Below, piece by piece: positions 36,567-58,254 of a stretch of DNA of 64,000 bases. A program made the position numbers and the translations under genes. Below the pieces are notes generated by a model. The model did no database searches. It worked only from the letters and a program-made list of their open reading frames with translations, and was not told the origin of the DNA. This DNA comes from Alphaproteobacteria bacterium (GTDB taxonomy: Bacteria > Pseudomonadota > Alphaproteobacteria > Rhizobiales > Rhizobiaceae), in NCBI GenBank assembly GCA_024742485.1, contig JANSYK010000002.1, positions 310,001 to 374,000 on the forward strand. Direction: 5' to 3'. Within the stretch, counting starts at the first letter, position 1. Every line of letters begins with the position of its first letter.

Positions 36567-37247
36567 CTAAGCGCCAACCATCTCGGCCACCACATGCGCG
36601 GTTGCGCTGGAAGCAACGATGGTCGGCGCGTCACAGGCGTCGGCAACCCGCTTCCGAGTGGAATGCCGGTAGCTGATGCAGTCATAGACCACGAGGACCG
36701 GTGCGTGCTGACTCATTTGCCGGGCGGCACCATCGATTTGTGAATCGGAGGCATCCGGCGCCAAGGGTACGACAGCCGGCTCAAAACCGTTCTTGCGCCA
36801 GCGTTCGGTTGCATGTGCGACCTGTTGCCGTTTCGGGATGAAAACACCGAGTGTCTTGTCGGGAGCGCCGGCGGCACGCGCGAAATTCAACATGACGCTG
36901 GAGGCCGTGATGATCTGCTGTTCCGCGAGTTCCGGAAAATATCCGGTGCAGCACATCACGTTGACGTGGCCCCCATCTGCGCGCAGCTCGGATATCCGGC
37001 TGCTCAGTTTCCCGGTCACGAACGCTTTCGACAGCAAGGTGGACCGACCGTCCGGCATGATGCTGAAAAGCGTATCGGCATCCGACAGCGGCCTGTTTGC
37101 ACCGACCTCTTCGTCCGGCACGCCATCGAGCGCGCCAACCATGCGGATCTCGCAGCGATTGCCAAGCACACGGCGGAACTCGGTTTCCAGATCCTCGCGT
37201 GGCGATCGGCCGATAACCATCAGGCCGATGAGTGGTTTGCGGGTCAT
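36567..37247 (-). CDS. AroM family protein
   Basis: A 226-residue cytoplasmic protein whose N-terminus (KPLIGLMVIGRSPREDLETEF) and middle (VMCCTGYFPELAEQQIITAS, GVFIPKRQQ) match the AroM family (PF07302). The name comes from E. coli aroM, which lies in an aroL operon, but the molecular function is unknown; the fold is related to Asp/Glu racemase-like proteins, with the CCTG segment in the position of an active-site Cys. Its ATG overlaps the stop of the HyuA-like gene (ATGA, 37244-37247). AroM as third gene after DUF917 and HyuA suggests a role in the same small-molecule pathway. Confidence 0.82.
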   Translation of the reverse strand: MTRKPLIGLMVIGRSPREDLETEFRRVLGNRCEIRMVGALDGVPDEEVGANRPLSDADTLFSIMPDGRSTLLSKAFVTGKLSSRISELRADGGHVNVMCCTGYFPELAEQQIITASSVMLNFARAAGAPDKTLGVFIPKRQQVAHATERWRKNGFEPAVVPLAPDASDSQIDGAARQMSQHAPVLVVYDCISYRHSTRKRVADACDAPTIVASSATAHVVAEMVGA

Positions 37248-38791
37248 GACGCGTTTCCGATGGACGCCTCACCGACAACCCGGACCCGGGTCCTGATGGC
37301 GTGTCCAGGCAGGTAGCTCAATGGCAGGTCCTCCACTTCGATGACCTTGATCGTTTCCCTGTCGGCGCCGGATCGGACGGCGCTTTCGATCGCCCCGGCC
37401 TTGGCCGCTTCGATCGCATCCTCTCGTGACATATCCCGATAGATTTTGTCGGTCTCACCGCTGATTTGCGCGATGGCCGCACCGACGGCATTGGCGACGG
37501 CCTCATGCTCCACATGGACAACCTCGGAGATTCCGGGGATCGTGTCGGGGATCAGCATGGCGCCGCCGCCGACGGCGAGCAGCGGCACCGGTTCGGCATC
37601 GGTCTTCATCCGGTCGACGCTGTCGGCGATCTCGCCATATATTGTGGTCAGCGTTGAATCGATGAAGTGCCGGTCGAGCCCGGCCACCCGGGCTCTGTCG
37701 CCGAGATCGATCAGGCCGGCGGCGACCGCGATATCGGTGCAGGTGACGGTCGAGCCGCCAAACACCATCGCCTCGTCCGCAAGCCGGTAGCCGACACTGA
37801 CAGGTCCGACCTTATGCGGTTCGCGCTGCACGATGGTGCCGCCGCCGATGGCGATCGACAGCAAGTCGGGCATGCGAAACAGGGTGCGCACGCCACCGAC
37901 TTCAACAACATTGTTGGCTTCGCGAGGAAAGCCCTGGATCAGGCAGCCTATATCGGCCGTCGTGCCACCGACATCGCAAACCATAGCATCGTCAATGCCT
38001 GCCAGAAGAGCGGCGCCACGCATCGAGTTGGTCGGGCCGGAAGCGAATGAATAGACCGGATAGTCGCGCGCTTCCTCCGCAACCACCACGGTGCCGTCAT
38101 TTTGGGTAATGAACAGTTTGGCCTTCAGGCCGCTTTCGGCCACCGCATCGACAAAGGACTGGGTGATTTCATCGGCAAGGCCGACCAGAGATGCGTTCAT
38201 CAGCGCGACATTTTCACGCTCCAGCAGGCCGATGCGGCCAAGCTTGCTTGACAGCGTGATGCGGGCATCGGGATGTTCGTTGCGCACAATGTCCGCCGCC
38301 TGTTGTTCGCACTCTGACGTCAGCGGTGAAAACGTCGCTGAGATGGCAATGGCATCGACACCGTTTTGCCTGATGCTGCGCGCTGCCTGTGCGATTTCCC
38401 GGCCATTCATCGGCACCAGCGGACGTCCGTCATATTCATGCCCGCCATGGACCATGTGAACGCCGCCATTGACCTCGGCGGCCAGATCAGACGGCCAGTC
38501 GCAAAACGGCAGCAGGCTCGCGGAGGCCGGCAACGATATCCGGATTGCCGCCGCGCGCCCGAGATTGCGGCGCTGCACCACCGCATTGGTATAATGGGTC
38601 GTGCCGATCATCACCGCCTCGACAATGCGGGCGGCGTCACCGGCCTGCGTGACGATCTCTTTCAGCGCGGCGCGCACGCCGGAAGTGACATCCTCCGTTG
38701 TGAACGTCTTGACCGCCGCGACCACTTTGTTGCCGTCAATCAAAACCGCGTCGGTGTTGGTGCCGCCGACATCGATGCCAATGCGCCTCAT
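37244..38791 (-). CDS. Hydantoinase/oxoprolinase family protein (short HyuA-like), set 1
   Basis: A 515-residue ASKHA-fold protein. The phosphate-1 loop is RIGIDVGGTNTDAV at 3-16. GTTHYTNAVVQRR follows at about 64-76, the second ATP loop is MVCDVGGTTADIG, and GGVRTLFRMPDLLSIAIGGGTIV is near the middle. This is the N-terminal plus central part of ATP-dependent N-methylhydantoinase/5-oxoprolinase alpha subunits. It is shorter than HyuA proper (about 690 residues), because the C-terminal domain is absent, and no HyuB gene is nearby. It is coupled by overlaps to AroM and, at the other end, to a DUF917 gene (38788-38791). ATP-driven opening of a cyclic amide is the family-level inference. Confidence 0.88.
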   Translation of the reverse strand: MRRIGIDVGGTNTDAVLIDGNKVVAAVKTFTTEDVTSGVRAALKEIVTQAGDAARIVEAVMIGTTHYTNAVVQRRNLGRAAAIRISLPASASLLPFCDWPSDLAAEVNGGVHMVHGGHEYDGRPLVPMNGREIAQAARSIRQNGVDAIAISATFSPLTSECEQQAADIVRNEHPDARITLSSKLGRIGLLERENVALMNASLVGLADEITQSFVDAVAESGLKAKLFITQNDGTVVVAEEARDYPVYSFASGPTNSMRGAALLAGIDDAMVCDVGGTTADIGCLIQGFPREANNVVEVGGVRTLFRMPDLLSIAIGGGTIVQREPHKVGPVSVGYRLADEAMVFGGSTVTCTDIAVAAGLIDLGDRARVAGLDRHFIDSTLTTIYGEIADSVDRMKTDAEPVPLLAVGGGAMLIPDTIPGISEVVHVEHEAVANAVGAAIAQISGETDKIYRDMSREDAIEAAKAGAIESAVRSGADRETIKVIEVEDLPLSYLPGHAIRTRVRVVGEASIGNAS

Positions 38792-39909
38792 GACGAATGC
38801 TCCCCGAAGACCGATTTGAAGTCGAGATCGAACCCGAAAGCCCGTGGACCGACATTGGCCAAGCCCAACTCCGACAGGAAGACCGGCGGCGCCGGCAGCG
38901 CCACCACCGACACCCGCTGGCCGAAGCGCAGAATATCGGTTCCGATCCCCTCGCCGCTGACCGAATCGAGCACGCAGATCAGGTCCGGCGTCATCACCAC
39001 CGGATCTGCGTTACGATAGGCGACGGAATATTCATTCTGGAAATGCACGATCATCTCGGCTCCCAGGTCATCGTCCAGCCCCTCGATGATCGATTTGCCG
39101 CGCAGGAAACCTTCAGCGGCCCGCCGTTCCACATCGATGACCTTTCCGGTGAAGATTTTCTTGCCGCGCCCCGCCTGCAAAACCGCATCAATCGGGTCTG
39201 CGTGGTCGCGCTTGGCCTGAAGGATGGTCTCGCCCAGCCGGATTGCCTTGCTGACGGAATAGAGAATGCCGTGCTGCTTTATTTCGGCGCCGCTGCGCGG
39301 CGCCTTGCAGGTGGCCGCGATCGATCCGAATTCGGTGCACGCCTTGCGGCTGATCCGCTCCATCCACCGCCAGCTTGCGGCCCGTGGGACAATCAGTTCA
39401 TTGTCGCGGATATCGGCCATGGTCAGCGGATAACAGCGAAGATTGGCGATGGCTACGGATGTCATCTGGGCTTCCGGATAGGCGCGGCCCATCGTGTCGG
39501 CATCGACCACCGGATACCCGGTCAGGGCACCCACCTGCATGGGATGCACGCCATTGCCGCCGCCGATCTCCAGCGCCATGACCGCATCGAATTTGCGGCC
39601 GATATATTCTTCCATCATTCGCACCGGCTTGATTGCGAATCGCGGATCGGCGAGACGTTCCTGGCCGACCAGCGGGGCGCCCATATTGGACAGCACAGCC
39701 ACCAGCGCGTCATCGGCAAGGGCCATCGGATCGATCAGGGAGACCGTGTGACCCGCCGCGTAGAGCTGCCGCATATTGAGCAGTTTGTGATAGGGGTCGC
39801 CCCCGCCACCGGTGCCGAGGATCCAGGCGCCCTTGGCGAGCGCCTCGATGTCTTCGCCAGTCAGGGTCCGCGTCGTTTGGCTTGGAGTCCTCTGTGCCAA
39901 TGTCGTCAT
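38788..39909 (-). CDS. DUF917 family protein (S-Me-THD-like), set 1
   Basis: A 373-residue protein of the DUF917 family (PF06032). The Gly-rich AWILGTGGGGDPYHKLL is at about 28-44, MALEIGGGNGVHPM and VDADTMGRAYPEAQM follow, and the C-terminal LANVGPRAFGFDLDF closes it. Pfam links this family to S-methyl-thiohydantoin desulfurase-like enzymes (from memory), consistent with its repeated pairing with hydantoinase-like HyuA proteins. Unlike the two paralogues in set 2, the C-terminal LPC segment reads LPAPP, lacking the Cys. It is the first gene of the minus-strand trio and is divergent from a Dpp-type ABC operon. Confidence 0.88.
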   Translation of the reverse strand: MTTLAQRTPSQTTRTLTGEDIEALAKGAWILGTGGGGDPYHKLLNMRQLYAAGHTVSLIDPMALADDALVAVLSNMGAPLVGQERLADPRFAIKPVRMMEEYIGRKFDAVMALEIGGGNGVHPMQVGALTGYPVVDADTMGRAYPEAQMTSVAIANLRCYPLTMADIRDNELIVPRAASWRWMERISRKACTEFGSIAATCKAPRSGAEIKQHGILYSVSKAIRLGETILQAKRDHADPIDAVLQAGRGKKIFTGKVIDVERRAAEGFLRGKSIIEGLDDDLGAEMIVHFQNEYSVAYRNADPVVMTPDLICVLDSVSGEGIGTDILRFGQRVSVVALPAPPVFLSELGLANVGPRAFGFDLDFKSVFGEHSS

Positions 39910-40263
39910 ACTGTCATCCTGTAGCGGTCACACGGCGCGTCTGGACGGGCCGGTGGGAGTGGTGTGCGCCAGAATTTCGACGCCGGGACAGCAATTGGCA
40001 AATAGAATTATCAAATGTCCCGAATAATCCGTGCCTATGCCGGAAAAATGGTCTTAAAGCATTGAAAAATAACAGATTACAACCGAAATAGCGTCGCGTT
40101 ATAAACCCCATGAATAACCTCTATGGGGGTTCTGGCGCAAAGATAGTTTCAGCCAATATCAACCATTGACAATAACGAATTTCCACCGCCGCGCATGCCT
40201 GCAATTTTGTCACGACCCATAAGGCCCGGTTGGGCATGACAAAGACGAAAGAGGAGAACGGCA
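39910..40263. promoter_or_regulatory. Divergent promoter region between the DUF917 trio and the Dpp operon
   Basis: A 354-nt gap without genes that must hold promoters in both directions. Its centre (about 40000-40190) is AT-rich. The best feature is a T-N11-A dyad at 40105-40130. The plus-strand gene has an AGGAG Shine-Dalgarno at 40252-40256. A TTGACA at 40166-40171 lacks a good -10 partner. Confidence 0.5.
40105..40130. promoter_or_regulatory. LysR-type (T-N11-A) operator candidate
   Basis: ACCCCAT (40105-40111) and ATGGGGGT (40123-40130) are dyad arms (6 bp exact) exactly 11 nt apart between the inner T and A, the classical LysR-type T-N11-A box. It lies between the two divergent operons, and a LysR gene is the last gene of the plus-strand operon. 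Confidence 0.6.
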
Positions 40264-41853
40264 ATGCGTATTGACTGGAACTGGTTGCGATCAGCGGTGC
40301 TGGGCGTTGTGCTGGCGGTGACCGCCATCGCCGGTGCCGGGGCGGTCGAGAAGCTCGACGGCAAACTTTATCTCGTAATAGCCGGGCGTCAGCCGGTCTC
40401 GACGCTCGATCCGGCGCAGAAATACGATTACGCCATCCGTATGATGGAGCAGGCGCTCTATGACGGTCTGGTCAAATATGAAGGCAATCCGCCCGAGGTC
40501 AAACCCTGGCTCGCCGAGAGTTGGGAGGTGTCCGACGATGGTCTCGTGTGGACATTCCATCTCGTCGACAACGCCAAATTCCACAATGGCGATCCGGTGA
40601 ATGCAGAGGCTGTCCGCTATTCTTTCGTGCGGACATTGGAACTGAACAAGGGTCCGGCCTGGATGTTGCAGGATTTCCTGGCACCCGAGGGCATCGAAGC
40701 CGTCGATGACCGGACTGTGCGCTTTACCCTCAAAAAGCCCTATGCGCCGTTCCTGTCCTTTCTGCCCTGGTGGTTCATCGTCAATCCGGCGATTGTCGAG
40801 GCCAATTCCGTGGATGGCGACCGCGCTCAGACCTGGCTGAACGAAAATGCCGCCGGCTCGGGCCCGTTCAAACTCGCCAAATTCGAACAAGGCAAAGCCT
40901 ACTGGCTCGAGGTCAACAAGGACTACTGGAAGGGCTTCCCCTATGAGGCTGACAATTTCGGCGGGATTATCTACAAGCTCGTTCGTGAGAGTGCCGGACA
41001 GCGCGCCGCCCTGATCAAGGGTGAGGCAGACATCGTCGGTGGTCTGACGCCCGAGGAGATGGAAAAGATTGCCGAGCGTGAGGGCATCCACACCACAACC
41101 TTGCCGGCGCTCACGGCGTTTGGCCTCAAATTCAACACCCAGAACGAGCACATGTCCGACATCAATGTGCGCAAGGCCATCGCGCACGCATTCGACTATG
41201 ACGGCCTTGTCAAGATCTTCAACGGTGAAGCCAAACTGCAGACAAGTCCCTTTGGCGATGCCATCAAAGGCAAGATCGATGTCGCCGGCATTCCGCGCCG
41301 CGATCTGCAAATGGCCAAGGACTATCTGGCGAAATCCGCATGGCCGGATGGCGGATTCGATGTTGAATATGTCTATGTCCAGGGTTTCGAAGAAGAGCGC
41401 CAGATGGGTCTGCTTCTGATCGATGCCCTCAAGGATCTCAACATCGACGTCAAGATGACGCCCCTGACCTGGCCCAATATGGTCGGCAGAGCAGCCGAGG
41501 TCGACACTGCACCGGACATCATCGCGATCTTCGCGACACCTGTCTCGACCGATCCCGATGCCGTTGCGATCCAGTATCACCCGACATCCTTCGGCAAATA
41601 TTACGGCTCTCATTTCCTCGAAGACGAAGAATTGAAGGGGATGATCGAAAAGGCGCGCAATGAGACGGACTGGTCGAAGCGGCAGCCGATTTACGCCGAG
41701 ATCCAGGAACGCATCGTCGAGCTCCAGCCGGAAATTTTCGGCATGATGCGCAATCGCCGCTTTGCGTTCCGTGATTGGGTCAAGGGGTTCCAGGACAGTC
41801 CGATCCGCATGACCGAGGAGATCGACCTCTATCCTCTCCATATCGCGAAGTAG
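40264..41853 (+). CDS. Peptide-type ABC transporter substrate-binding protein, set 1
   Basis: A 529-residue periplasmic protein of the SBP_bac_5 family, with a signal peptide ending AGAVEKL. Typical parts are VSTLDPAQKYDYAIRMMEQALYDGL, the LAESWEVSDDGLVWTFHLVDNAKFHNGDPVNAEAV segment (split here in description) and PYAPFLSF. Such proteins bind di- or oligopeptides, opines, glutathione or other small polar molecules and deliver them to DppBC permeases. The motif LELNKGPAWML recurs as LSLNEGPAFLF in the set 2 binding protein (47634-49232), suggesting related ligands. It is the first gene of the operon, and a hairpin follows it. Confidence 0.92.
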   Translation: MRIDWNWLRSAVLGVVLAVTAIAGAGAVEKLDGKLYLVIAGRQPVSTLDPAQKYDYAIRMMEQALYDGLVKYEGNPPEVKPWLAESWEVSDDGLVWTFHLVDNAKFHNGDPVNAEAVRYSFVRTLELNKGPAWMLQDFLAPEGIEAVDDRTVRFTLKKPYAPFLSFLPWWFIVNPAIVEANSVDGDRAQTWLNENAAGSGPFKLAKFEQGKAYWLEVNKDYWKGFPYEADNFGGIIYKLVRESAGQRAALIKGEADIVGGLTPEEMEKIAEREGIHTTTLPALTAFGLKFNTQNEHMSDINVRKAIAHAFDYDGLVKIFNGEAKLQTSPFGDAIKGKIDVAGIPRRDLQMAKDYLAKSAWPDGGFDVEYVYVQGFEEERQMGLLLIDALKDLNIDVKMTPLTWPNMVGRAAEVDTAPDIIAIFATPVSTDPDAVAIQYHPTSFGKYYGSHFLEDEELKGMIEKARNETDWSKRQPIYAEIQERIVELQPEIFGMMRNRRFAFRDWVKGFQDSPIRMTEEIDLYPLHIAK

Positions 41854-41863
41854 CGCGAAACCG

Positions 41864-41892: not shown

Positions 41893-41919
41893 CCTTTCCT
41901 CGACTGAACGGATGGGCCG

Positions 41920-42930
41920 ATGCTCAAGTTGATCTACCGCCGCCTGCTGATGATGGTCGTGATGCTGCTCGGCCTGCTGGCGATCATGTTTGTAGTTGCC
42001 AATGTGGCGCCTGGAGATCCGGCCCGCCTCGCTGCCGGCCCCGATGCGACCCGCGACATGGTGGAAACCATTCGCGTCGAGCGTGGTCTCGACAAGCCGC
42101 TTCCGCAGCGCTTCGTGATTTATCTGGGCAGTGTCGTCACAGGCGATCTTGGAACATCGATCCATACCGGCCGGGCAGTGCTGCACGACCTTGCGATCTA
42201 TTTTCCGGCCACATTGGAGCTGGTTCTGTTCTCGATCGGCCTGGCCATTGTTCTGGGCATTCCGCTCGGGGTCATCGCCGCCGTCAATCACAACCAACTG
42301 GCCGATCACATCATCCGCATTTTCGCCGTATCAGGCGTCGCCATGCCGATGTTCTGGCTCGGCCTCATGCTGCAATGGTACCTGGCGCTGGAGTTGAACT
42401 GGTTCCCCCTGGGCGGGCAGCTTGATCTGATGAGCGACCCGCCGACCCGCATCACCGGCATGCTCACGGTGGATGCGCTGCTGACCGGCAATTTCGCGAT
42501 CTTTCTCGGGGCGGTGGCGCATCTGTTCCTGCCGGCCCTGTCTTTGAGCTTTCCGGCGCTTGCCTCGATCATCCGCGTCAACCGGGCCGAGATGCTGGAA
42601 ACGCTCAACCGCGATTACATCACCAATGCCCGGGCGCAGGGGATCGGCCCGTTGCGCATCGTCGCCGCTTACGCGCTGAAAAATGCCCTGCTGCCGACGC
42701 TCGCGATGATCGGATTGCGCTTTGGCTGGATGCTCGGCGGCACCGTTCTGGTGGAGGGTGTCTTCGACTGGCCCGGTGTTGGTCTTTATGCCGCCAAGGC
42801 GGCAATCAGTTCCGATTTCGAGCCGATCATGGCCGTTACCCTGGTCCTCGGCGCAAGCTTCATGCTGGCGAATCTGCTCATCGATCTGACCTATGCCGCG
42901 CTGGATCCGCGCGTGCGGGCGCAAGTGTGA
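41920..42930 (+). CDS. DppB-like ABC transporter permease, set 1
   Basis: A 336-residue inner-membrane protein with six predicted helices. MLKLIYRRLLMMVVMLLGLL is the first, a periplasmic loop with PGDPARLAAGPDAT follows, and the EAA loop is NRDYITNARAQGIGPLRIVAAYALKNALLP, which contacts the ATPase. This matches the DppB/OppB group. It pairs with the permease gene 7 nt downstream to form the channel. The ATG at 41920 is the first in frame after the hairpin. Confidence 0.94.
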   Translation: MLKLIYRRLLMMVVMLLGLLAIMFVVANVAPGDPARLAAGPDATRDMVETIRVERGLDKPLPQRFVIYLGSVVTGDLGTSIHTGRAVLHDLAIYFPATLELVLFSIGLAIVLGIPLGVIAAVNHNQLADHIIRIFAVSGVAMPMFWLGLMLQWYLALELNWFPLGGQLDLMSDPPTRITGMLTVDALLTGNFAIFLGAVAHLFLPALSLSFPALASIIRVNRAEMLETLNRDYITNARAQGIGPLRIVAAYALKNALLPTLAMIGLRFGWMLGGTVLVEGVFDWPGVGLYAAKAAISSDFEPIMAVTLVLGASFMLANLLIDLTYAALDPRVRAQV

Positions 42931-42937
42931 GGCAGCC

Positions 42938-43825
42938 ATGACGGACGTGACATTCTCTGAACGACACGAAAGCTCGATCCGCGAATACAGGCGAATGGCA
43001 GCCACGTTCCGACGGTCCTCGTCGGCCATGTTCGGGCTGGTCATTGTCCTTGTCTTTTTATTAATGGCCCTGATCGGCCCATGGATCGCCCCCTTCCCGG
43101 AGGACGCGCTCGGTGCGGTCCATCTGGACAACAAACTCCAACCGCCGAGCGCCGCGCACTGGTTCGGGACCGACGAGGTGGGTCTCGATATCTTTTCCCG
43201 GGTCCTGATCGGTGCCCGTGTCTCGCTTCAGATCGGCCTGATCGTCACCGGCGTTGCCATGTTGATCGGCGTGCCGTTGGGCATGCTGGCGGGCATGTCG
43301 GGCGGCTGGATGCGAGAGACGATCATGCGGGTAACGGATATTTTTCTGTCGATTCCGGGTCTGATCCTGGCGATTGCCATCGTCGGGGCGCTCGGGCCCG
43401 GCATCATCAATGCGATGATCGCGCTCTCGCTTGTCTGGTGGCCCGGCTATGTCCGGCTGGTCGAGGCCAAGACGCTGTCGTTGAGAAACGAGACCTATGT
43501 GGATGCGGCGCGCGCGCTGGGCGCGCCGATGCACCGGATCCTGTTTGTCCATATCCTGCCCAACTGCCTGTCGCCCATCGTCGTCAAGGCGAGCATGGAT
43601 ATGGGCATGGCGATCCTTGGCGCGGCGAGCCTCGGTTTCCTTGGCCTCGGCGCCCAGCCGCCCTATCCCGAATGGGGCGCGATGATCTCCATCGGGCGCA
43701 ACTATATGCCGGATTGGTGGTGGTACTCGTTTTTCCCGGGCCTGGCGATTTATCTGACCGTTCTCGGCTTCAATCTTCTTGGAGACGGGCTGCGTGACGT
43801 GCTCGACCCGAGGCAGCGCTCATGA
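42938..43825 (+). CDS. DppC-like ABC transporter permease, set 1
   Basis: A 295-residue permease: cytoplasmic N-terminus to about 33, first helix MFGLVIVLVFLLMALIGPWI, the FGTDEVGLDIFSRVLIGARVSL segment typical of DppC/OppC, an EAA loop in ETYVDAARALGAPMHRILFVHILPN, and the terminal GDGLRDVLDPRQR. ATG 42938 is used; the upstream open extension overlaps the previous gene. Its stop overlaps the start of the ATPase gene (ATGA, 43822-43825). Confidence 0.94.
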   Translation: MTDVTFSERHESSIREYRRMAATFRRSSSAMFGLVIVLVFLLMALIGPWIAPFPEDALGAVHLDNKLQPPSAAHWFGTDEVGLDIFSRVLIGARVSLQIGLIVTGVAMLIGVPLGMLAGMSGGWMRETIMRVTDIFLSIPGLILAIAIVGALGPGIINAMIALSLVWWPGYVRLVEAKTLSLRNETYVDAARALGAPMHRILFVHILPNCLSPIVVKASMDMGMAILGAASLGFLGLGAQPPYPEWGAMISIGRNYMPDWWWYSFFPGLAIYLTVLGFNLLGDGLRDVLDPRQRS

Positions 43826-44814
43826 GCGATCCCATCCTCTCGATCCGCGATATGCGGCTGGAGTTCGACACGTTCGACGGCGTCTACAAGGCCATCGACG
43901 GGGTCAGCCTGAATGTTGCGCCCGGCGAGGCGCTGGGGCTTGTCGGCGAGACCGGTTGCGGAAAGTCCGTGCTGACCCGGGCCGCCTTCGGGCTGGTTCC
44001 CAGCCCGCCGGCGCGGATCACCTCGGGAGAGGTCCTGTTCGGTGGCCGCGATCTTCTGTCACTCCGCGAAAAACAGCTGCGCTCCATTCGCGGTGCGCAG
44101 GTGGCGATGATCTTCCAGGATCCGATGACCTATCTCAACCCGGTTTTCAAGGTCGGAACCCAACTGGTCGATGCCATCATCGCCCAGCAGAAAGGGGCCA
44201 TCGCACGGCGGGCGGCACGTGATCTGGCGCTTGAAATGCTCGACAAGGTGCACCTTCCGAACCCGCAGCGGCAATTCGACAGCTATCCGCATGAGCTTTC
44301 CGGCGGCATGCGCCAGCGTGTGCTGATCGCCATGGCGCTGGCAGCAAAACCGAAACTGTTGATTGCCGACGAACCGACAACAGCACTGGACGTCACGGTG
44401 CAGGCACAGATCCTCGATCTGATCGCCGAACTGGTCAGCGAGCTGGGTCTGTCGGTTATCATGATTTCGCACGATCTTGGCGTCGTCGCCCAGGTCTGCA
44501 ACCGCGTTGCCGTCATGTATGCCGGACAGATTGTCGAGGACGCACCGGTTGCCGACATATTCGACAATCCGAAGCATCCCTATACGCTCGGCCTGCTGAA
44601 GGCCATTCCGCATCCGCTCAGACCAGTGGAGCATCTGGCCGGGATTCCCGGTTCCCTGCCGAATCTGTATACTCCGCCGACCGGCTGCCGGTTCGCCGAC
44701 CGGTGTTCCCATGCGGTTCCGGTCTGCACCGATGGCAAACCACCGCTGATGGATCTTGGCGCCGGCCATCGGGTTGCCTGTACCTTGTACCGGAAGGAGC
44801 ACGTCGATGCTTGA
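43822..44814 (+). CDS. DppD-like ABC ATPase, set 1
   Basis: A 330-residue ATPase with Walker A GETGCGKS at 42-49, signature LSGGMRQR, Walker B LLIADEPTTALDV and the H-loop ISHDLGVV. The C-terminal oligopeptide/dipeptide domain contains CRFADRCSHAVPVC, the Cys pattern that in DppD/OppD homologues can bind an iron-sulfur cluster. It energises import through the two permeases together with the next ATPase. It overlaps DppC by 4 nt and the following ATPase start by 8 nt. Confidence 0.95.
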   Translation: MSDPILSIRDMRLEFDTFDGVYKAIDGVSLNVAPGEALGLVGETGCGKSVLTRAAFGLVPSPPARITSGEVLFGGRDLLSLREKQLRSIRGAQVAMIFQDPMTYLNPVFKVGTQLVDAIIAQQKGAIARRAARDLALEMLDKVHLPNPQRQFDSYPHELSGGMRQRVLIAMALAAKPKLLIADEPTTALDVTVQAQILDLIAELVSELGLSVIMISHDLGVVAQVCNRVAVMYAGQIVEDAPVADIFDNPKHPYTLGLLKAIPHPLRPVEHLAGIPGSLPNLYTPPTGCRFADRCSHAVPVCTDGKPPLMDLGAGHRVACTLYRKEHVDA

Positions 44815-46710: not shown

Positions 46711-46721
46711 TCCGCCTGCAT

Positions 46722-49232: not shown

Positions 49233-49269
49233 GCTTGTAGCTCCCTTAGTTATCGGTCAGGCGGCGTGC

Positions 49270-50367: not shown

Positions 50368-51473
50368 TGGACGCCTCCCGCCTTGTTGTTCCGGGGCATG
50401 GGTGAATAGACAAGATCCGTGTAGCCGAACGCTGCGGGTCCGATGACCTTCAGTGCTTCCTCGGACCGAAGAAGGTCGTGGCAGGGCAGTGCCAGAATGG
50501 CGATTCGCTGGCCGTATCTCAAAAGCTCCGTGGTGATCGGCAGGCCCGTGTCGGAATCAAGCACCACGATCAGGTCGGGTACACAGGTCTCCATCACGCC
50601 GTTGCGCCGAAACACCAGGAACTCGTTCTGCAGGTCGATCAGGCCTGTTTCGCCCTGATTGGGACCGAACCCTTCGACCTTGACCTCGCCAACGGCGAAG
50701 CCGCCCTTCAGATGCCGTTTGAGGTCGACGATCTTGGCTGTCATCAGCAGCCGGCCGTCCTCGTGCTCAAGAATGGCAGCGACAGGATCGCGGTGCTCGG
50801 CCTGGGCTTCGAACACTGCTTTGCCGAGCGACCATGCCTGCGTCACGGTGTCCGGAACGGCGTATTTCTTTATGAAGTCCCCACGCATTGGTGCCAGGGC
50901 TATGCCAGCCGCCGCGCCCATGGCAACGACGGAAGCGCGGGCCAGCCGTTCCAGCCAGACTTCCGATGCCGTGTTGCGGAAGACCACCACATTGCCTTTC
51001 TCGTCGGCCATCGCAGAGGGCGAGGATTTGTGTCCGTAGATCGACCATGTGCACATCTGCATCTCGGGGAACGCCCGGCCCATGCCGTCGCCGTCGACAA
51101 CGGGAATGCCGGCCTGAGCCGCCGTCAACATCGGCTCCATGGAGTTGGCGCCGCCGATCTCGGATGAAATCGTTGCATCGATTTTCTGTCCGAGCTCTTC
51201 CTCGAGCGCCTGCAGGGCCCGAAGACATTCTTCGCCCTGTTCGATCTTTTCAACGCCGACAACAGGTGCGCCAATACCGCCGAGCGAGACCACCAGGGCA
51301 TTGTCATCGAGTTCGCGCAGCGGAATGACGTCGATGCGCCGGCCCTTGCGCAACTCCTCGCGGCAACGCAGCTTGCCGATATAGGGATTGCCGCCGCCGC
51401 CGGTTCCCAGGATACCGGCGCCGACTTCGATGGCATCGAGTTCGGGCTCTCTAACATGTCTCAGACTATCCAT
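50364..51473 (-). CDS. DUF917 family protein, set 2 (first copy)
   Basis: A 369-residue DUF917 protein. From ATG complement 51471-51473 it begins MDSLRHVREPELDAIEVGAG, then GILGTGGGGNPYIGKL, ISSEIGGANSMEPM, VDGDGMGRAFPEMQM and the C-terminal ALPCHDLLRSEEALKVIGPAAFGY. A longer upstream frame (to 51752) lies inside the HyuA gene and is not used; the chosen start overlaps the HyuA stop by 8 nt (51466-51473), giving tight coupling to it. It retains the LPC Cys. Confidence 0.88.
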   Translation of the reverse strand: MDSLRHVREPELDAIEVGAGILGTGGGGNPYIGKLRCREELRKGRRIDVIPLRELDDNALVVSLGGIGAPVVGVEKIEQGEECLRALQALEEELGQKIDATISSEIGGANSMEPMLTAAQAGIPVVDGDGMGRAFPEMQMCTWSIYGHKSSPSAMADEKGNVVVFRNTASEVWLERLARASVVAMGAAAGIALAPMRGDFIKKYAVPDTVTQAWSLGKAVFEAQAEHRDPVAAILEHEDGRLLMTAKIVDLKRHLKGGFAVGEVKVEGFGPNQGETGLIDLQNEFLVFRRNGVMETCVPDLIVVLDSDTGLPITTELLRYGQRIAILALPCHDLLRSEEALKVIGPAAFGYTDLVYSPMPRNNKAGGVQ

Positions 51474-53007
51474 TGAGATCACCAACGACCTTGAGACGAA
51501 TACGGGTGGCATTGCCGGGCAGGTAGGCCAGAGGAACGTCTTCCTGATCGAGGATTTCGATCGTGTCGGCCTTGGCGCCGGCGGCGATCGCCTTTTCGGT
51601 GGCCTCCTTGCGGGCGCTTTCCAGCGCCTCGTCGCGGGAGATCTTTTCCAGACTGAAGATGCGGTCGACCTCGCCGCTGATCTGTCCGATCGCCGCGCCA
51701 ACGGCGTTGGCCACCGCGAAGTTTTCGGGCTTGACGACCGGCAGTTCACCAACCGTATCGCGCATCAGAATGCTGCCGCCGCCAACCGCCAGGACCGGGA
51801 TTTTGTCCGGAGATACGCGCATGCGTTCCACCGAATTGACAATCATTTCATCGATCATCGCCCACACCGTTTTGAGGCGGTCTTCGCCAATGGCACGTGC
51901 CGGTGCCGGATCGCCGAAATCGGCAAAGCCCAGGCCCGCGGCAATATCTGTCGTTGTGGTCGTTTTGCCGCCGAACAGCAGGCCCTCCGTATGGATGCGG
52001 TACCCGACGGATTTGGGTCCGACCGTTATCGGGTCACCAAGATCGACAATCGATCCGCCCCCCAGCGCGATCGAATAGACGTCCGGCATGCGGAAGTTCG
52101 TCCGCACGCCGCCAATGTCCACCGAGGTGCTGGCCTGCCGCGGAAATCCCTTGATGATCGAGCCGACATCGGTCGACGTACCGCCGATATCGACGACCAC
52201 CGCATCCTGCTCGCCGGTCAGAAACGACGCGCCGCGCATCGAATTGGTCGGGCCGCTGGCGAAGGTCAGGACCGGATAGGCGCGGACGAAATCGGCGCTC
52301 ATCAAGGTACCGTCGTTCTGGGTAATGTAGCAGGGACAGGAAAGTCCCGCCGATGCCAGAGCCTTGCCGAAGGCCTCCACGGTTTCCCCGCTGAGCTTGC
52401 GCAGGGACGCATTCATGATCGCGGCGTTTTCCCGCTCCAAAATTCCCAGGCGGCCGATATCGCTCGACAGGGTGAAATTGGCATGCGGCAGTCGTTCGGC
52501 CATGATCTTGTGTGCCCGGCTTTCCATCTCGTTGTTGACCGGGCTGAACACCGAACACAGGGCAATCGTGTCGATGTCCTTCTTGCCGATTTCATCGGCA
52601 ATGCCGCGCAATTCATCTTCGTCGATGGCTGAAATATCGCGTCCGTCGAATTCATTTCCGCCCTTGGCCAGCCAGAAATGGCCGCCGACTGTCTCACGGA
52701 TATCATCGGGCCAGTCGACCATTGGGGGCAGGCATTCAGCCGCGGGAAGACACAGGCGAACCGCCGCAGTCTTTGACATCCGCCGGCGTTCGACGACGGC
52801 ATTGGTGAAGTGCGTGGTGCCAATCATCACGGCGCTGATCTGATCGGCACCGATCCCGCTTTCGTCAAGAACCCGTGTCAGGCTGGCAATGATGCCGCCG
52901 GTCACATCTTCCGTTGTCGGAGACTTCACGCCGAGCACAAGCGTGTCGCCGTCCATAACAACCGCATCCGTATTGGTTCCGCCGACGTCTATTCCTATCC
53001 GGTACAT
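51466..53007 (-). CDS. Hydantoinase/oxoprolinase family protein (short HyuA-like), set 2
   Basis: A 513-residue paralogue of the set 1 HyuA-like protein. It has RIGIDVGGTNTDAV at 3-16, GTTHFTNAVVERRRM at about 65-79, VVVDIGGTSTDVGSIIKGFPRQ, and GGVRTNFRMPDVYSIALGGGSIV. Like set 1 it lacks the C-terminal domain of full-length HyuA, and no HyuB gene is nearby. It lies 10 nt downstream of the fused ATPase gene and overlaps the next DUF917 gene by 8 nt. ATP-dependent hydrolysis of a cyclic amide is the family-level prediction. Confidence 0.88.
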   Translation of the reverse strand: MYRIGIDVGGTNTDAVVMDGDTLVLGVKSPTTEDVTGGIIASLTRVLDESGIGADQISAVMIGTTHFTNAVVERRRMSKTAAVRLCLPAAECLPPMVDWPDDIRETVGGHFWLAKGGNEFDGRDISAIDEDELRGIADEIGKKDIDTIALCSVFSPVNNEMESRAHKIMAERLPHANFTLSSDIGRLGILERENAAIMNASLRKLSGETVEAFGKALASAGLSCPCYITQNDGTLMSADFVRAYPVLTFASGPTNSMRGASFLTGEQDAVVVDIGGTSTDVGSIIKGFPRQASTSVDIGGVRTNFRMPDVYSIALGGGSIVDLGDPITVGPKSVGYRIHTEGLLFGGKTTTTTDIAAGLGFADFGDPAPARAIGEDRLKTVWAMIDEMIVNSVERMRVSPDKIPVLAVGGGSILMRDTVGELPVVKPENFAVANAVGAAIGQISGEVDRIFSLEKISRDEALESARKEATEKAIAAGAKADTIEILDQEDVPLAYLPGNATRIRLKVVGDLNG

Positions 53008-53017
53008 CCGATGCCTC

Positions 53018-54721
53018 TCAATTCAGCGTTGTCGTTGATAACAGGACAGCGTTTCTCTCACTGGCCTCGATAATGGGTTTTTGCGCAGCTTCCTCGTCTG
53101 TCAGAACGGGAATCGCGCTCAAAAGCGCGCGCGTATACGGGTGTTGCGGATTGGCAAAGACATCCGGCGTCTCCCCCTGTTCGCAGATTTCACCCCGGAA
53201 CATGATGGCCACGCGGTTGCAGAAATTGCGCATCAGGCTCAAATCATGGCTGATGAACACATAGGTCAGATCGAGTTCCGACCGCAGGCGCTGCAAAAGA
53301 TCGATTACCACGTTTTGGATCAGCACATCGAGTGCCGAGGTTGGTTCGTCCAGCACCAGTATTTTCGGATCGACCGACAAGGCCCGGGCAATGGCGACGC
53401 GCTGTTTCTGTCCGCCCGAAAGCTCGTGTGGATACATCGAGGCGTAACGCGCCGGCAGATCCACCAGTTCGAGCAATTCACGAATCCGCGCGGCAATGGT
53501 CGATCGGTCGAAATCGGCAAAGATCAGCGGCACGGACAATTGATCGGCCACCGTTCGCTTCGGATTGAGCGACGATCCGGGATTCTGATAAACGATCTGG
53601 ACCAGTTTCCTGAAGTCGCGGCTTCCTGCGGCATCATGCACATTCAGTTTGTCCATTGTGATGGCGCCATCAGTGGCGTCGAACAGGCCGAGCATCATTT
53701 TGGCAAGGGTCGTTTTGCCGGAACCCGATTCACCGGCAATGCCGAAAATATCGCCGCGATTGATGGTCAGTTCCACATCCTTGACGGCGCGTGTGATGCC
53801 CACCTGTCGATTGAACAAACCACTGCGCAGCGGGAAATCCTTGCTGATGTCCCGGACTTTGATCATGGCATCTTCGGCCCGTTCATTCGTGACATCTGTC
53901 ACTCGGGACCCGTAGAGCGAGGGAACGGCCTCCATCAGGCGCCTGGTGTATCCGTGCTGCGGGTTATTGAAAATCTCGGCGCGGGTGCCGGTCTCGACAA
54001 TGCGGCCGCGCTCCATGACATAGACACGATCGGCCATTTCCCGCACGACCCCGAGATTGTGCGTGATCAGCATCAGCGACATGCCGGTTTCGTCCACCAG
54101 CCTGTTGAGCAGCACCAGGATTTCCTGCTGGGTCGTCACATCGAGCGCCGTACCCGGTTCATCCGCGATCAACAGGCGCGGGCTGTTGAGCAGGGCCATG
54201 CCGATCAGCACCCGCTGGCGCATGCCACCCGACAACATCATGGGATAGGCAGAGCAGATCCGTTCAGGGTCGGCCAGTTGCACGTTGCGCAACACCTCGT
54301 GGATGCGGGCCGTGCGATCAGCGCGGCGTCTTGATATGTTCAGCCTGATATCGGCAAACCGCACCACATCGTCCATCTGCCGGCCAATAGTGAGCAACGG
54401 GTTGAAGGACAGCATCGGATCCTGAAGAACGATCGATATTCCAGTGCCCTTCAGGCGGTTGCGCGCCCGCTTGTCCAGTGTCAGCAACTCGGTGCCTTCG
54501 AACCGGATGGATCCGCGTTCGATGATGGCGGGCGGCATGGGCAGCGTGCCGATAATCGTTCGCATCGTGACAGTTTTGCCGGATCCCGATTGTCCGATCA
54601 GCGAGACGCGCTCACCCTGATCGATATGCATGGACACGTCATGCAGGATCTGGCTCTTCTGGCCGTAGCTGGTAAACGAGATGTCCAGGCCGGATATGCC
54701 GAGAATGGGTTCGCCGGTCAT
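53018..54721 (-). CDS. Fused double ABC ATPase (DppD-DppF type), set 2
   Basis: A 567-residue protein carrying both motor domains in one chain. Domain 1 has Walker A GQSGSGKT at 43-50, signature LSGGMRQR and Walker [14 protein letters not shown]. Domain 2 has GESGSGKT at 330-337, signature LSGGQKQR and Walker [14 protein letters not shown]. Both have an H-loop (ITHNLGVV and ISHDLSLM). In set 1 the same functions are two separate genes. It overlaps the upstream permease gene by 4 nt (54718-54721) and sits in the minus-strand operon. Confidence 0.94.
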
Positions 54722-55605
54722 AACTCGACATCCATCATGTCGCGCAGCCCGTCACCCAGCAGGTTGAATCCCAATATCGCGTAGAGGATCGCCATGCCCG
54801 GCATGACGGCTTCCCACCAGAATTCCGGCAGATATTCCGATCCGGTGCTGACCATGGTGCCGAGGTCCGGTGTCGGCGGCTGCACGCCAAGCCCGAGAAA
54901 CGACAGGGCCGCGCCGAAAAGGATGACGAAGCCCGCGTCGAGGGAAACCTTGACCGAGATCGCCGAGACACAGTTGGGCAGCAATTCCCGGAACATGATG
55001 TGAAAATGACTGGCGCCGGCCACCTTCGCCGCCTCCACATAGTCTTCGCTCATCTGCGCCTTGACGATGCGGTAGATCAGCCGCGTGTGCCAGGTCCACC
55101 ACAGAAGCGTGATCGCGATCATCGCATTGATCAGATTGGGTGACAGGACAGCGGTGATGGCCAGAGCCATGGCAAGCGGCGGAACGGCCAGCATGATGTC
55201 GGTGAACCGCATGATGATGAACTCCACACGGCCGCCAAAATAGCCTGCCATCAGGCCGAGTGTGATGCCGAAGGGCACGGCGACACCGAGCACGCCGACC
55301 ACCAGGCCGAGTGAGATGCGATAGCCAAAGAGCGACCGGCTGAAGATGTCTCGCCCGACATTGTCGGTCCCGAACCAGAACTCCCAGCTCGGCGGTGAAT
55401 GCCGGTTGATGAAGTCCACATGGGCGCCGGCCGATTCGGGATGGGTGGCGAGATAGGGCGCGAAAATCGCGGCGACGAAAACCGAGATGACGATCAGCGA
55501 TCCGATGATCGCCGACGGATTGCGGGTGAAGCGGTACCAGGCCATCTGGCGGCTGGTGAGTGTTCGCTGCTGTCGGGCGTCGTCCAGTTGCGTGTGGCTG
55601 CTCAT
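54718..55605 (-). CDS. DppC-like ABC transporter permease, set 2
   Basis: A 295-residue permease. A cytoplasmic N-terminus is followed by the helix IIGSLIVISVFVAAIFAPYL, then the FGTDNVGRDIFSRSLFGYRISL segment, the EAA loop EDYVEAAKVAGASHFHIMFRELLPN, and the C-terminal [12 protein letters not shown]. Both ends overlap the neighbouring genes by 4 nt, as expected for a tightly translated operon. It pairs with the DppB-like protein to form the channel. Confidence 0.94.
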   Translation of the reverse strand: MSSHTQLDDARQQRTLTSRQMAWYRFTRNPSAIIGSLIVISVFVAAIFAPYLATHPESAGAHVDFINRHSPPSWEFWFGTDNVGRDIFSRSLFGYRISLGLVVGVLGVAVPFGITLGLMAGYFGGRVEFIIMRFTDIMLAVPPLAMALAITAVLSPNLINAMIAITLLWWTWHTRLIYRIVKAQMSEDYVEAAKVAGASHFHIMFRELLPNCVSAISVKVSLDAGFVILFGAALSFLGLGVQPPTPDLGTMVSTGSEYLPEFWWEAVMPGMAILYAILGFNLLGDGLRDMMDVEL

Positions 55606-56624
55606 GCCTTCTGCGCCCCGCGGATCCGGTGACGCGGATCGATGATGCCAAGCAGCACATCGATGGTCAGATTGGCAATCACGAAAAAGACGCCGGAGAC
55701 CAGCACCACACCAATGACGGCGTTGAGATCCTTCTGCAGGATCGTGCGCACGCCGTAGCTGGCAATACCGGGCCAGCTGAAGACGAACTCGACCACAAAG
55801 GCATTGCCGATCAGCGAGGCAAATTCGAGACCGAGAATGGTCAGGGGCGCGACACTGGCGACGCGCAGCATGTAGCGAAACGTGATGACCCGTTCAGGAA
55901 TGCCATAGGCGCGGGCGGCCTCGATGAAATCCCGCGATCCCACTTCAATCATCGCCGAACGGGTGATCCGCATCACCTGACCGATGCCACCGGCCGCGAG
56001 TGCGATGGCCGGCAGAAACAGGTAGCGCAGCGCATCGATAAACACGTCCGGACGGCCGGCGATCACCGAATCGATCAACAGGAGACCGGTCGTGTTGGCC
56101 TGAAAATCCAGACTCGGATCGAGCCGGCCCGTCACCGGGAAACTGGTGAAATAGTAGCTTGCCAGAAGCTGCAGGATAATCGCCAGAACGAACCCCGGGA
56201 TGACGACGCCCAACAGCGACAGGATGCGGGTGATGTTGTCGATCCAGCTGTCACGATAATAGGCGGCAAGCACGCCGAGCGGTATGGATATGCTGATTTG
56301 CAGGATGACTGTCGCCAGGACCAGTTCGAACGTCGCGGGCAGCGCTTGCAGAATGTCGCTCATGACGGGTCTGCTCGTCAGAAGCGACTTTCCCAGATCA
56401 CCCTGTGCCAGGCCGACCAGATAGTGCCAGAGTTGAACGTAGATGGGGTCGTTCAAACCCATTTCCTGCCGCAGTTCGGCGACCTGATTGGCCGTAGCCA
56501 GGGGCCCGAGGGCGATCCGCGCGGGATCACCGGGAACAATTCTCGCAATCACGAAAATCATCACCGCCAGTCCCAGCAGCACCATCAGGAGCGACAGGGC
56601 TCGCTTGGTCAGGTAAAACGCCAT
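55602..56624 (-). CDS. DppB-like ABC transporter permease, set 2
   Basis: A 340-residue permease: first helix LTKRALSLLMVLLGLAVMIFV, a periplasmic loop with VPGDPARIALGPLAT, GQVMRITRSAMIEV and the EAA loop FIEAARAYGIPERVITFRYMLRVA. It is the first structural gene of the set 2 operon, 88 nt downstream of the regulator gene at 56713. That gap is AT-rich and is the likely operon promoter region. Its last bases overlap the following DppC-like gene. Confidence 0.94.
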   Translation of the reverse strand: MAFYLTKRALSLLMVLLGLAVMIFVIARIVPGDPARIALGPLATANQVAELRQEMGLNDPIYVQLWHYLVGLAQGDLGKSLLTSRPVMSDILQALPATFELVLATVILQISISIPLGVLAAYYRDSWIDNITRILSLLGVVIPGFVLAIILQLLASYYFTSFPVTGRLDPSLDFQANTTGLLLIDSVIAGRPDVFIDALRYLFLPAIALAAGGIGQVMRITRSAMIEVGSRDFIEAARAYGIPERVITFRYMLRVASVAPLTILGLEFASLIGNAFVVEFVFSWPGIASYGVRTILQKDLNAVIGVVLVSGVFFVIANLTIDVLLGIIDPRHRIRGAQKA

Positions 56625-56712
56625 TCCGTACTCCCCGCGCGCATGCTGGCAGAACGCAAATCGATTCCCGACTCTTAAAGGGTATAAATTCGGATTTTAG
56701 CGTATAGTATTT

Positions 56713-58254
56713 TCAAGAATTTATAGATTCTTCAAATTTTTCAATCAATTGCCCTCGTTTGGATACCTCGAACGAGACAAAAAGTCGTCCAAGGTGATAC
56801 TTGATGGCGGCCTCGGAAAGCCCCAATTTGCGGGCGATCTGTTTGTTGCTTGCGCCTTCCCTCAAGGCGGACAGCACGCGCAATTGTTGTGCCGAAACGC
56901 CGCGATCGGACAGCGAGACGGGCGTCAGATAACTGGTTCGAACAAGGTTGTGAATTCGTCTTGCCATGCGGCCGAGCTGGATGTGACCGCGCGCGAACTT
57001 GCCGGAGGCCAGCTGAGAGGAGACCCCGATGACCAGATCACGATGTTCCAGAAACAGGCCGACCAAGCCCTCCCGCACCGCATGGCGCATCGCGTTCTGC
57101 ACATGTCGCCGCTGGCGCACCTTGTCGCGCTCCAGTTTGGCCTGTGTCGCTTTGCTCAGCTCACCCACGACGGCATGACGCGTCGAGACACCCGCATCCG
57201 GCAACGGCAACCATTCCGCGTCGGATTCGAGTTTCCCCAACACGCCGCCGAGAACGATCGCGCCCGTGGCGCCCAACGCTTTCCGGCTGGTCTCGGTTAT
57301 CGTCGCGTAGAGTTGTGCCCGCTCATGCCGACCGTCGAGCAGTTCAACCGCTGCGCCAATGACATCCAGTGCCTCCGAAAACTCGCCATGGCGGCGGTGG
57401 AAATCGGTCTGGCTGTCTTCCAGAAATGCCATTGCGCTTTCCAGCCCCTGTGCAAAATAGATCGACAGGGCGCCGACCCGGCACAATTCGACAAAGATCT
57501 CCGCCCAGCTGTCACCCGACAGCAACTGGCGTCGCAGGTAGACCACCCTCTCGGGAACGGAATCAAATCGGCCGGTCTCCCAGGCGATGGCACAATCCAG
57601 AATTTCAACAAGTGCAGCACCGGAAATATGCGCGGCATCTTCCTCGGCCAGCATCGCACGCGCCATGTCGGTTGCCCGGTGCGCGCTGCGGATATTGCCC
57701 TCCAGAATATCGATATGCGCAAGATGCAGGTGAATGAAGAATTCCAGTGCCGTGTGCTTGGCCTGACGGTAGCTTTCAAGCGACCGCAGCGCGATGATGC
57801 GTGCCTGGGACAGCCGGTTGAGCCGGACCAGAACAATGGCCATGCAATTGTAGTAAAGACCGTCATAGAGCGGCTGGTCGATAGGCAGCAGAACCTCAAG
57901 GTGTTTCCAGCGTTCGAACTGTTCATCTGTGACCGGATCGCTCATGTGAATGAAAACAACCAGTTCCATGAGGTCTCGCAGGAAAACCGAGCTGTAAATC
58001 TCCCGTTTGCTTGCCAACAGGGCGCTGGCTCGCCTTGCCCGACCTGCCTTCACCAATGAAAAACAATAGCAGGACAGCAGCATCTGGTTGTTGTTGAGTG
58101 CATCCTCGGTGGCTGACATGACCAGTTGGTTCAACGCTTCATAGCCATGCACGAAGCTGAAAAGCGGCCCGCCATTTGCCTCCAGCATTGCTTCCGCCTC
58201 GCCAATTGCACCTTCGTTGAGCAATTGGATGATCTGTTGCGGTGCGTCGCTCAT
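56713..58254 (-). CDS. LuxR-type HTH regulator with a long helical N-terminal region
   Basis: A 513-residue protein. The last 65 residues form a LuxR-type HTH (LRVLSALREGASNKQIARKL, then GLSEAAIKYHLGRLF), while residues about 1-430 are all alpha-helical with repeated A/L-rich pairs (for example LIFVELCRVGALSIYFAQGLESAM), as in TPR-type or MalT-like superhelices. A Walker A motif is not visible, so it is not a full MalT/LAL-type ATPase. It lies 39 nt downstream of the AHL-type LuxR gene and upstream of the set 2 operon in the same direction. It is probably a ligand- or protein-responsive activator of that operon. Confidence 0.75.
   Translation of the reverse strand: MSDAPQQIIQLLNEGAIGEAEAMLEANGGPLFSFVHGYEALNQLVMSATEDALNNNQMLLSCYCFSLVKAGRARRASALLASKREIYSSVFLRDLMELVVFIHMSDPVTDEQFERWKHLEVLLPIDQPLYDGLYYNCMAIVLVRLNRLSQARIIALRSLESYRQAKHTALEFFIHLHLAHIDILEGNIRSAHRATDMARAMLAEEDAAHISGAALVEILDCAIAWETGRFDSVPERVVYLRRQLLSGDSWAEIFVELCRVGALSIYFAQGLESAMAFLEDSQTDFHRRHGEFSEALDVIGAAVELLDGRHERAQLYATITETSRKALGATGAIVLGGVLGKLESDAEWLPLPDAGVSTRHAVVGELSKATQAKLERDKVRQRRHVQNAMRHAVREGLVGLFLEHRDLVIGVSSQLASGKFARGHIQLGRMARRIHNLVRTSYLTPVSLSDRGVSAQQLRVLSALREGASNKQIARKLGLSEAAIKYHLGRLFVSFEVSKRGQLIEKFEESINS

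What the first reader, a model, noticed from the sequence alone, without database searches (positions are those of the whole stretch)
36567..58254. Two adjacent DUF917 + short HyuA + Dpp-importer gene sets, a candidate undescribed uptake and ring-opening system
Two sets with the same parts list but different layouts lie side by side. Set 1 is AroM-HyuA-DUF917 divergent from SBP-DppB-DppC-DppD-DppF-LysR. Set 2 is DppB-DppC-fused DppDF-HyuA-DUF917-DUF917-SBP preceded by LuxR-type regulators. Both HyuA-like proteins are about 515 residues and lack the C-terminal domain of N-methylhydantoinase A, and no HyuB gene is present. So the enzyme core is probably HyuA plus DUF917 (plus AroM in set 1), and the substrate comes in through a peptide-type importer. 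Seen: gene order, overlaps, motifs. Known: HyuA/oxoprolinase enzymes open cyclic amides with ATP; DUF917 has been linked (from memory) to thiohydantoin desulfurase-like proteins. Inferred: import and opening of a cyclic amide, thiohydantoin or cyclic-peptide-like compound.
Basis: partly seen in the sequence, partly recalled or inferred. Interest (0 to 1): 0.82.

Follow-up and report, generated by a model that had tools for sequence, protein, structure and literature searches.

The report
Paired HyuA–DUF917 ring-opening uptake systems
Two neighbouring gene sets probably let the bacterium take up and break open small ring-shaped amides such as cyclic dipeptides, using a widespread but unstudied enzyme pair that differs from the known ATP-driven ring openers.

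Summary
In detail: two sets of DUF917 + ~515-aa HyuA + Dpp-type importer lie at 36567-58254, and no HyuB was found. Each protein forms one clade and their distances mirror (r 0.895, 76 pairs). Members occur in Pseudomonadota, Chloroflexota, Bacilli and Haloferax. The one confirmed S-methyl thiohydantoin desulfurase examined lies outside this clade, without HyuA. The Dpp importer is exchangeable for Pot-type ABC or NCS1 permeases. Short HyuA keeps the kinase-like fold and phosphate motifs, but not the C-terminal barrel and, in 133 of 134, not the GxxPGP motif. Best reading: HyuA activates and DUF917 opens an amino-acid-derived cyclic amide, most likely a diketopiperazine, else a hydantoin. Clues: cyclodipeptide-oxidase genes beside DUF917 in Chloroflexota, isoaspartyl peptidase/M19 dipeptidase beside double sets in relatives, two-cysteine AroM, binding proteins without DppA Asp408. 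Activity and substrate are untested. Ten searches of the held library found no study of the pair.

The parts
36567..37247 (-). AroM-family protein (226 aa), two-cysteine racemase type (C100, C190)
   Evidence: PF07302 168.6 bits; cysteine pair
37244..38791 (-). short HyuA, set 1 (515 aa): ASKHA kinase-like subunit without the C-terminal barrel
   Evidence: PF05378 + partial PF01968; model pLDDT 87.8; fold; motifs
38788..39909 (-). DUF917 / S-Me-THD-like protein, set 1 (373 aa)
   Evidence: PF06032 + PF20906; model pLDDT 93.1; matches 2o3i
40264..41853 (+). substrate-binding protein SBP_bac_5, set 1 (529 aa); Val at the DppA Asp408 position
   Evidence: PF00496
41920..42930 (+). DppB-type permease, set 1
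   Evidence: open frame and its homologues in relatives; not scanned with Pfam here
42893..43825 (+). DppC-type permease, set 1 (start uncertain)
   Evidence: not scanned with Pfam here
43822..44814 (+). DppD-type ATPase, set 1
   Evidence: not scanned with Pfam here
44807..45763 (+). DppF-type ATPase, set 1 (likely ATG start at 44807)
   Evidence: not scanned with Pfam here
45733..46710 (+). LysR-family regulator
   Evidence: PF03466 + PF00126
47634..49232 (-). substrate-binding protein, set 2 (532 aa); Thr at the DppA Asp408 position
   Evidence: NCBIfam SBP matches; alignment to DppA
49270..50367 (-). second DUF917, set 2 (365 aa)
   Evidence: PF06032 + PF20906; NCBIfam
50364..51473 (-). 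first DUF917, set 2 (369 aa from the ATG at 51473)
   Evidence: PF06032 + PF20906; start read
51466..53007 (-). short HyuA, set 2 (513 aa), 50% identical to set 1 HyuA
53018..54721 (-). fused DppD-DppF ATPase (567 aa)
   Evidence: two ABC_tran and two oligo_HPY stretches
54718..55605 (-). DppC-type permease, set 2
   Evidence: not scanned with Pfam here
55602..56624 (-). DppB-type permease, set 2
   Evidence: not scanned with Pfam here
56713..58254 (-). GerE-type regulator (513 aa, N-terminal part without a Pfam match)
   Evidence: PF00196; similar proteins beside several relatives of set 2
58294..59025 (-). autoinducer-binding LuxR-type regulator; belonging to the system is doubtful
   Evidence: PF03472 + PF00196; not labelled in any relative

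Best explanation
Each set is an uptake-and-opening module for a small cyclic amide derived from amino acids. The binding protein and importer bring the ring in. AroM in set 1 presumably flips a stereocentre next to a ring carbonyl. Short HyuA, an ASKHA-fold kinase-like subunit, activates the ring carbonyl with ATP, as is proposed for the A subunits of caprolactamase and hydantoinases. DUF917, encoded beside it, completes water addition and ring opening where the known enzymes use HyuB. The likeliest substrates are 2,5-diketopiperazines (cyclic dipeptides), which would yield linear dipeptides for ordinary dipeptidases; 5-substituted hydantoins come second. Shown by sequence here: gene content, linkage, single clades, co-inheritance, predicted folds, kept and lost motifs. 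Inferred: ATP use, division of labour, ring opening, substrate.
Against: No activity was measured and no HyuA-DUF917 contact was modelled. The adenosine motif GxxPGP of the known family is in 1 of 134 short HyuAs against 7 of 7 full-length ones, so ATP use is not assured. In L184 and L185 pairs of high-scoring DUF917 lie beside full-length HyuA plus HyuB, so DUF917 is not simply a stand-in for HyuB. CDOB was found in 0 of 398 genomes of the window's phylum, its own included (nothing rang there, though the same query rang in Chloroflexota). NCS1 permeases in Bacilli and Sodalis, PucR regulators in two Bacilli and a carbon-nitrogen hydrolase in L186 fit hydantoins or ureides as well. The dipeptidase evidence comes from relatives, not from the window. 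Many solute-binding proteins of non-peptide ligands also lack that Asp (recalled).
Confidence: 0.5

Rival explanations
1. Same module, but the substrate is a 5-substituted hydantoin or similar ureide ring; the product is an N-carbamoyl amino acid. (This overlaps with the best explanation, which leaves it as second choice.)
For: Five of 16 plasmid regions read have a cytosine permease (NCS1) beside the pair; racemases annotated as aspartate/glutamate or allantoin racemase; CN_hydrolase in L186 and Amidohydro_1 in L187 and L189; an annotated N-carbamoyl-beta-alanine amidohydrolase on the other strand in L147.
Against: No carbamoylase was seen in the window sets; dipeptidases and isoaspartyl peptidases rather than carbamoylases accompany the double sets; cyclodipeptide-oxidase genes accompany some members.
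Confidence: 0.25
2. Short HyuA does not phosphorylate the substrate; it is an ATPase that activates or reactivates DUF917, which does the chemistry alone.
Against: The closest matches are the hydantoinase/carboxylase kinase subunits over the full length; a tightly coupled 1:1 pair is also what a two-step kinase-hydrolase predicts.
Confidence: 0.2
3. The pair desulfurates a thiohydantoin or S-methyl thiohydantoin, as characterised DUF917 proteins do, and HyuA then opens the hydantoin.
For: Family membership in PF06032/PF20906; a core of residues is shared with the non-HyuA branch: R142, R188, N292, E293, P308, P355.
Against: Window proteins score 100-115 bits against desulfurase cut-offs of 440-450, control 555; E84, D166 and R262 are in at least 142 of 143 clade members and in 1, 0 and 0 of 8 others; no urocanate-type pathway genes beside the window sets.
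Confidence: 0.08
4. The pair is a carboxylase-like enzyme related to acetone or acetophenone carboxylase rather than a hydrolase.
For: The HyuA model matches acetone and acetophenone carboxylase subunits as well as caprolactamase.
Against: No Hydantoinase_B-type subunit in the sets, which those carboxylases have; company of racemases, peptidases and amidases.
Confidence: 0.04

Closest known systems
ATP-dependent hydantoinase/oxoprolinase family (HyuAB, CapAB caprolactamase, N-methylhydantoinase)
   Same: Homologous A subunit with ASKHA fold and both phosphate motifs
   Different: A subunit lacks the C-terminal barrel and nearly always GxxPGP; HyuB mostly absent, DUF917 beside it instead
Thiohydantoin desulfurase / S-methyl thiohydantoin desulfurase (NF058529, NF058532)
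   Same: Same Pfam domains, fold (2o3i) and a shared residue core
   Different: Scores about a quarter of the family cut-off, separate clade, tied to HyuA
Non-CDPS cyclodipeptide-oxidase gene clusters (PMC11055893, passages read)
   Same: Share DUF917, AroM, racemases and dipeptide ABC transporters; in Chloroflexota the two systems meet in one gene run
   Different: The oxidase is absent from the window's genome sample; the passages I read do not name HyuA as a partner
Hydantoin utilisation operons (racemase, permease, HyuAB, HyuC; partly recalled)
   Same: Racemase + permease + HyuA-type opener logic
   Different: No HyuB, no carbamoylase; different importer in the window

Membership tests
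ATP-dependent hydantoinase/oxoprolinase (HyuAB) | A subunit of the HyuA family (PF05378 + PF01968) with ASKHA fold | tested here: met
   PF01968 matches only its first ~176 of 291 positions
ATP-dependent hydantoinase/oxoprolinase (HyuAB) | Phosphate motifs DxGGTxTD and DxGGT | tested here: met
   133 of 134 short HyuAs for each motif; both in the window copies
ATP-dependent hydantoinase/oxoprolinase (HyuAB) | Adenosine motif GxxPGP | tested here: not met
   1 of 134 short, 7 of 7 full-length; absent in both window HyuAs
ATP-dependent hydantoinase/oxoprolinase (HyuAB) | C-terminal domain of the A subunit | tested here: not met
   No PF19278, present in L184 HyuA; alignment ends at CapA 613 of 691
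ATP-dependent hydantoinase/oxoprolinase (HyuAB) | B subunit (PF02538) | tested here: not met
   No hit in the window with one HyuB query
ATP-dependent hydantoinase/oxoprolinase (HyuAB) | ATP-dependent ring opening | not testable with these tools
   Needs enzyme assays
Thiohydantoin / S-methyl thiohydantoin desulfurase | Score above the NCBIfam cut-off | tested here: not met
   All three window DUF917s 100-115 bits vs 440/450; control L140 555
Thiohydantoin / S-methyl thiohydantoin desulfurase | PF06032 + PF20906 domain pair | tested here: met
Cyclodipeptide-oxidase clusters | CDOA (PF00881) + CDOB (PF19585) | tested here: not met
   CDOB 0 of 398 genomes incl. own; present in Chloroflexota relatives
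Two-cysteine racemase superfamily (AroM) | Catalytic cysteine pair (role recalled) | tested here: met
   C100 and C190 in the window protein and all 56 complete stand-alone copies
DppA-type dipeptide-binding protein | Asp binding the free alpha-amino group (Asp408; role recalled) | tested here: not met
   Thr in SBP2, Val in SBP1

The most novel reading that the evidence does not exclude
Short HyuA plus DUF917 is a second architecture of ATP-dependent ring opener, in which an unrelated fold takes over the step known enzymes give to HyuB, and it is the unidentified bacterial hydrolase of cyclic dipeptides, found from archaea to Bacilli; catalytically dead AroM proteins fused to a LuxR-type DNA-binding domain sense its substrate.
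Probability: 0.27. Interest if true: 0.85.

Novelty: new variant of a known kind. Interest (0 to 1): 0.6.

Why it matters
The enzymes that open diketopiperazines in bacteria were called unclear in 2013 (PMC3852281, section 24 read), although Rhizobium sp. NA04-01 was shown there to degrade cyclo(Asp-Phe), cyclo(Gly-Phe) and cyclo(Asp-Asp). The HyuA-DUF917 pair gives a concrete, widespread candidate with its own importers, racemase and, in Rhizobium-type relatives, an isoaspartyl peptidase. If right, it would also show an ATP-dependent lactam opener that works without HyuB, and would give a role to a family annotated almost everywhere as DUF917.

Tried and rejected

Counting notes: the 80 loci are the best of 555 relatives, so they lean towards set 1; one search left out the short duplicate loci L090-L112 and L149-L183. 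Of 140 plasmid records I read 16 regions: 13 have an annotated hydantoinase/oxoprolinase gene next to DUF917, L148 has a frame-broken HyuA found only by my own search, and L140 and L146 have none. AroM count: L068 was put in the 'fusion' bin by its length alone but ends as a plain AroM; L081 is truncated and was dropped. SBP count: 52 relatives aligned, none with Asp in that column; 16 of them are divergent and their alignment is doubtful, hence 36.
Full report
What is there. The window lies at C102:310001-374000 of a 6.87-Mb draft genome. Two sets of genes occupy 36567-58254. Set 1 is AroM-HyuA-DUF917 divergent from SBP-DppB-DppC-DppD-DppF-LysR; set 2 is DppB-DppC-DppDF(fused)-HyuA-DUF917-DUF917-SBP with a GerE-type regulator upstream. 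The two HyuAs are 50% identical; the DUF917s of set 2 are 36-37% identical to that of set 1. A third set lies elsewhere in the genome: an ABC ATPase with TOBE_2, a MalT-like LuxR regulator, a flavodoxin/FMN-reductase-type protein, HyuA and DUF917 (L009). Of 17 HyuA matches in the genome, the three with short frames are those next to its four DUF917 genes.

Is the pairing general? I sampled 398 genomes of the phylum without regard to the finding. PF06032 rings in 20. Its 27 places fall into 18 of 170 bits or more, in 12 genomes, and 9 of 59-103 bits. I read 11 regions of the first kind outside this genome: 10 have a short HyuA beside DUF917, and the eleventh (L121) is a truncated DUF917. I read all 9 regions of the second kind: none has HyuA. 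The converse search with the short-HyuA profile gave 14 places in 11 of the same 12 genomes, all 14 next to DUF917 (only the three best candidates per genome were scored). In 251 Chloroflexota genomes, 27 have PF06032. Of 18 regions with a high-scoring copy, 14 have a short HyuA, two (L184, L185) have full-length HyuA with HyuB, and two are contigs of 5.0 and 6.4 kb without HyuA; of 11 regions with lower-scoring copies none has a HyuA. Sixteen plasmid regions add Bacilli, Haloferax and Sodalis, mostly with the same pair. By locus tags in a table passage of PMC12915319, Clostridioides difficile has the pair beside a permease; PMC7513527 lists the same three products in Lactobacillus rhamnosus (passages).

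One origin, inherited together. In trees of 191 DUF917 and 141 HyuA sequences, the high-scoring DUF917s form one clade (167 of 167, plus one further HyuA-linked copy, support 0.945) and the 134 short HyuAs form one clade apart from 7 full-length ones (support 1.0). Distances of 76 non-redundant pairs correlate at r = 0.895; the best of 1000 permutations reached 0.267. Shared descent of species and operon transfer contribute to such a figure. Set 1 is closest to copies with the same layout in Salipiger (L010, L133), an Oceanicola MAG (L011) and two sampled genomes (L118, L119); set 2 is closest to a Qingshengfaniella plasmid copy with the same layout (L141). So the two sets are not recent copies of each other. 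In 13 of 114 other loci with a short HyuA, a set-1-like and a set-2-like pair stand side by side with one importer, so the neighbourhood of the two types recurs.

Partners and what they hint. Importers vary: Dpp/Opp type, Pot-type ABC, and NCS1 cytosine-type permeases. AroM: all 56 complete stand-alone copies keep two cysteines at C100 and C190, the pattern of cofactor-free racemases (role recalled), whereas 9 of 9 copies with a C-terminal helix-turn-helix segment of the LuxR kind have lost both (Pfam GerE was confirmed on one further fusion, L013). I read these as sensors derived from the enzyme. In 10 of 13 double-set loci an isoaspartyl peptidase and/or M19 dipeptidase stands within the fetched flank (9 and 3 loci). 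In Chloroflexota both subunit families of cyclodipeptide oxidase (PF00881, PF19585; PMC11055893, passages) stand in gene runs with DUF917, in L186 and L187 together with short HyuA; 6 of the 8 CDOB places found in 251 genomes lie within 10 kb of DUF917. No CDOB was found in 398 genomes of the window's phylum, its own included. At the position of DppA Asp408, SBP2 has Thr and SBP1 has Val; none of 52 aligned relatives has Asp, and 36 of them have a clear motif. Since that Asp holds the free amino end of linear peptides (recalled), a ligand without a free amino end is likely.

Mechanism. Known family members phosphorylate the lactim or imidate form of the ring in the A subunit and hydrolyse it at a metal site in the B subunit (PMC8453981, passages). 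Here the A subunit is kept in reduced form and B is replaced, in most loci, by DUF917, a fold whose characterised cousins displace sulfur from the carbon of a related ring (from the family names in NCBIfam; papers on them were not found). I propose: import, optional epimerisation by AroM, activation by HyuA, opening by DUF917, then peptidases. Steps from activation on are inference. The L184/L185 exception shows DUF917 can also work beside a complete HyuAB, so its role may be a separate step on the same ring.

Substrate. Diketopiperazines are favoured by the oxidase link, dipeptidases, Dpp importers and SBP motif; hydantoins by NCS1 permeases, PucR regulators, the CN-hydrolase in L186 and racemases. 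PMC3852281 (passages and section 24) states that the enzymes hydrolysing diketopiperazines are unclear, and that a Rhizobium strain degrades rings with Asp or Phe, which fits the isoaspartyl peptidase beside Rhizobium-type double sets.

Novelty. Ten searches of the held library found four papers with DUF917, COG3535, PF06032 or S-Me-THD in the text, none studying the HyuA-DUF917 pair; subscription papers are mostly not held. I call it a new variant of a known kind: a HyuA-based ring opener with a different partner.

Noticed in passing
L016, L021, L023, L047, L080, L082, L085, L089, L148 (also L013:3408-4373): AroM domains fused to a LuxR-type DNA-binding segment; the nine aligned ones have lost both cysteines that all complete stand-alone AroMs keep, suggesting a sensor derived from a racemase.
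   Followed up: partly
L184, L185, L186, L187, L189, L203: Cyclodipeptide-oxidase genes (fused or separate) beside DUF917 in Chloroflexota; L184 and L185 combine a fused oxidase, two DUF917, full-length HyuA and HyuB.
   Followed up: partly
G000:C154:890000-909500 (L009): Third HyuA-DUF917 set of this genome, with a flavodoxin-type protein, a MalT-like LuxR regulator, and a nitroreductase-like protein 46% identical to one beside an R. leguminosarum set.
   Followed up: partly
58294-59025: LuxR-type regulator with an autoinducer-binding domain next to set 2; no LuxI was looked for.
   Followed up: no
59233-62882: Branched-chain-type ABC importer genes (SBP, two ATPases, permease) divergent from the LuxR gene.
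   Followed up: no
31126-36553: Two GGDEF-EAL proteins flank a small protein with a molybdopterin-binding oxidoreductase domain, just left of set 1.
   Followed up: no
24878-26386: 502-aa open frame without any Pfam match.
   Followed up: no
L202, L206, L207, L210: AroM also accompanies lower-scoring DUF917 copies that have no HyuA, so AroM and DUF917 may act on a ring without it.
   Followed up: no
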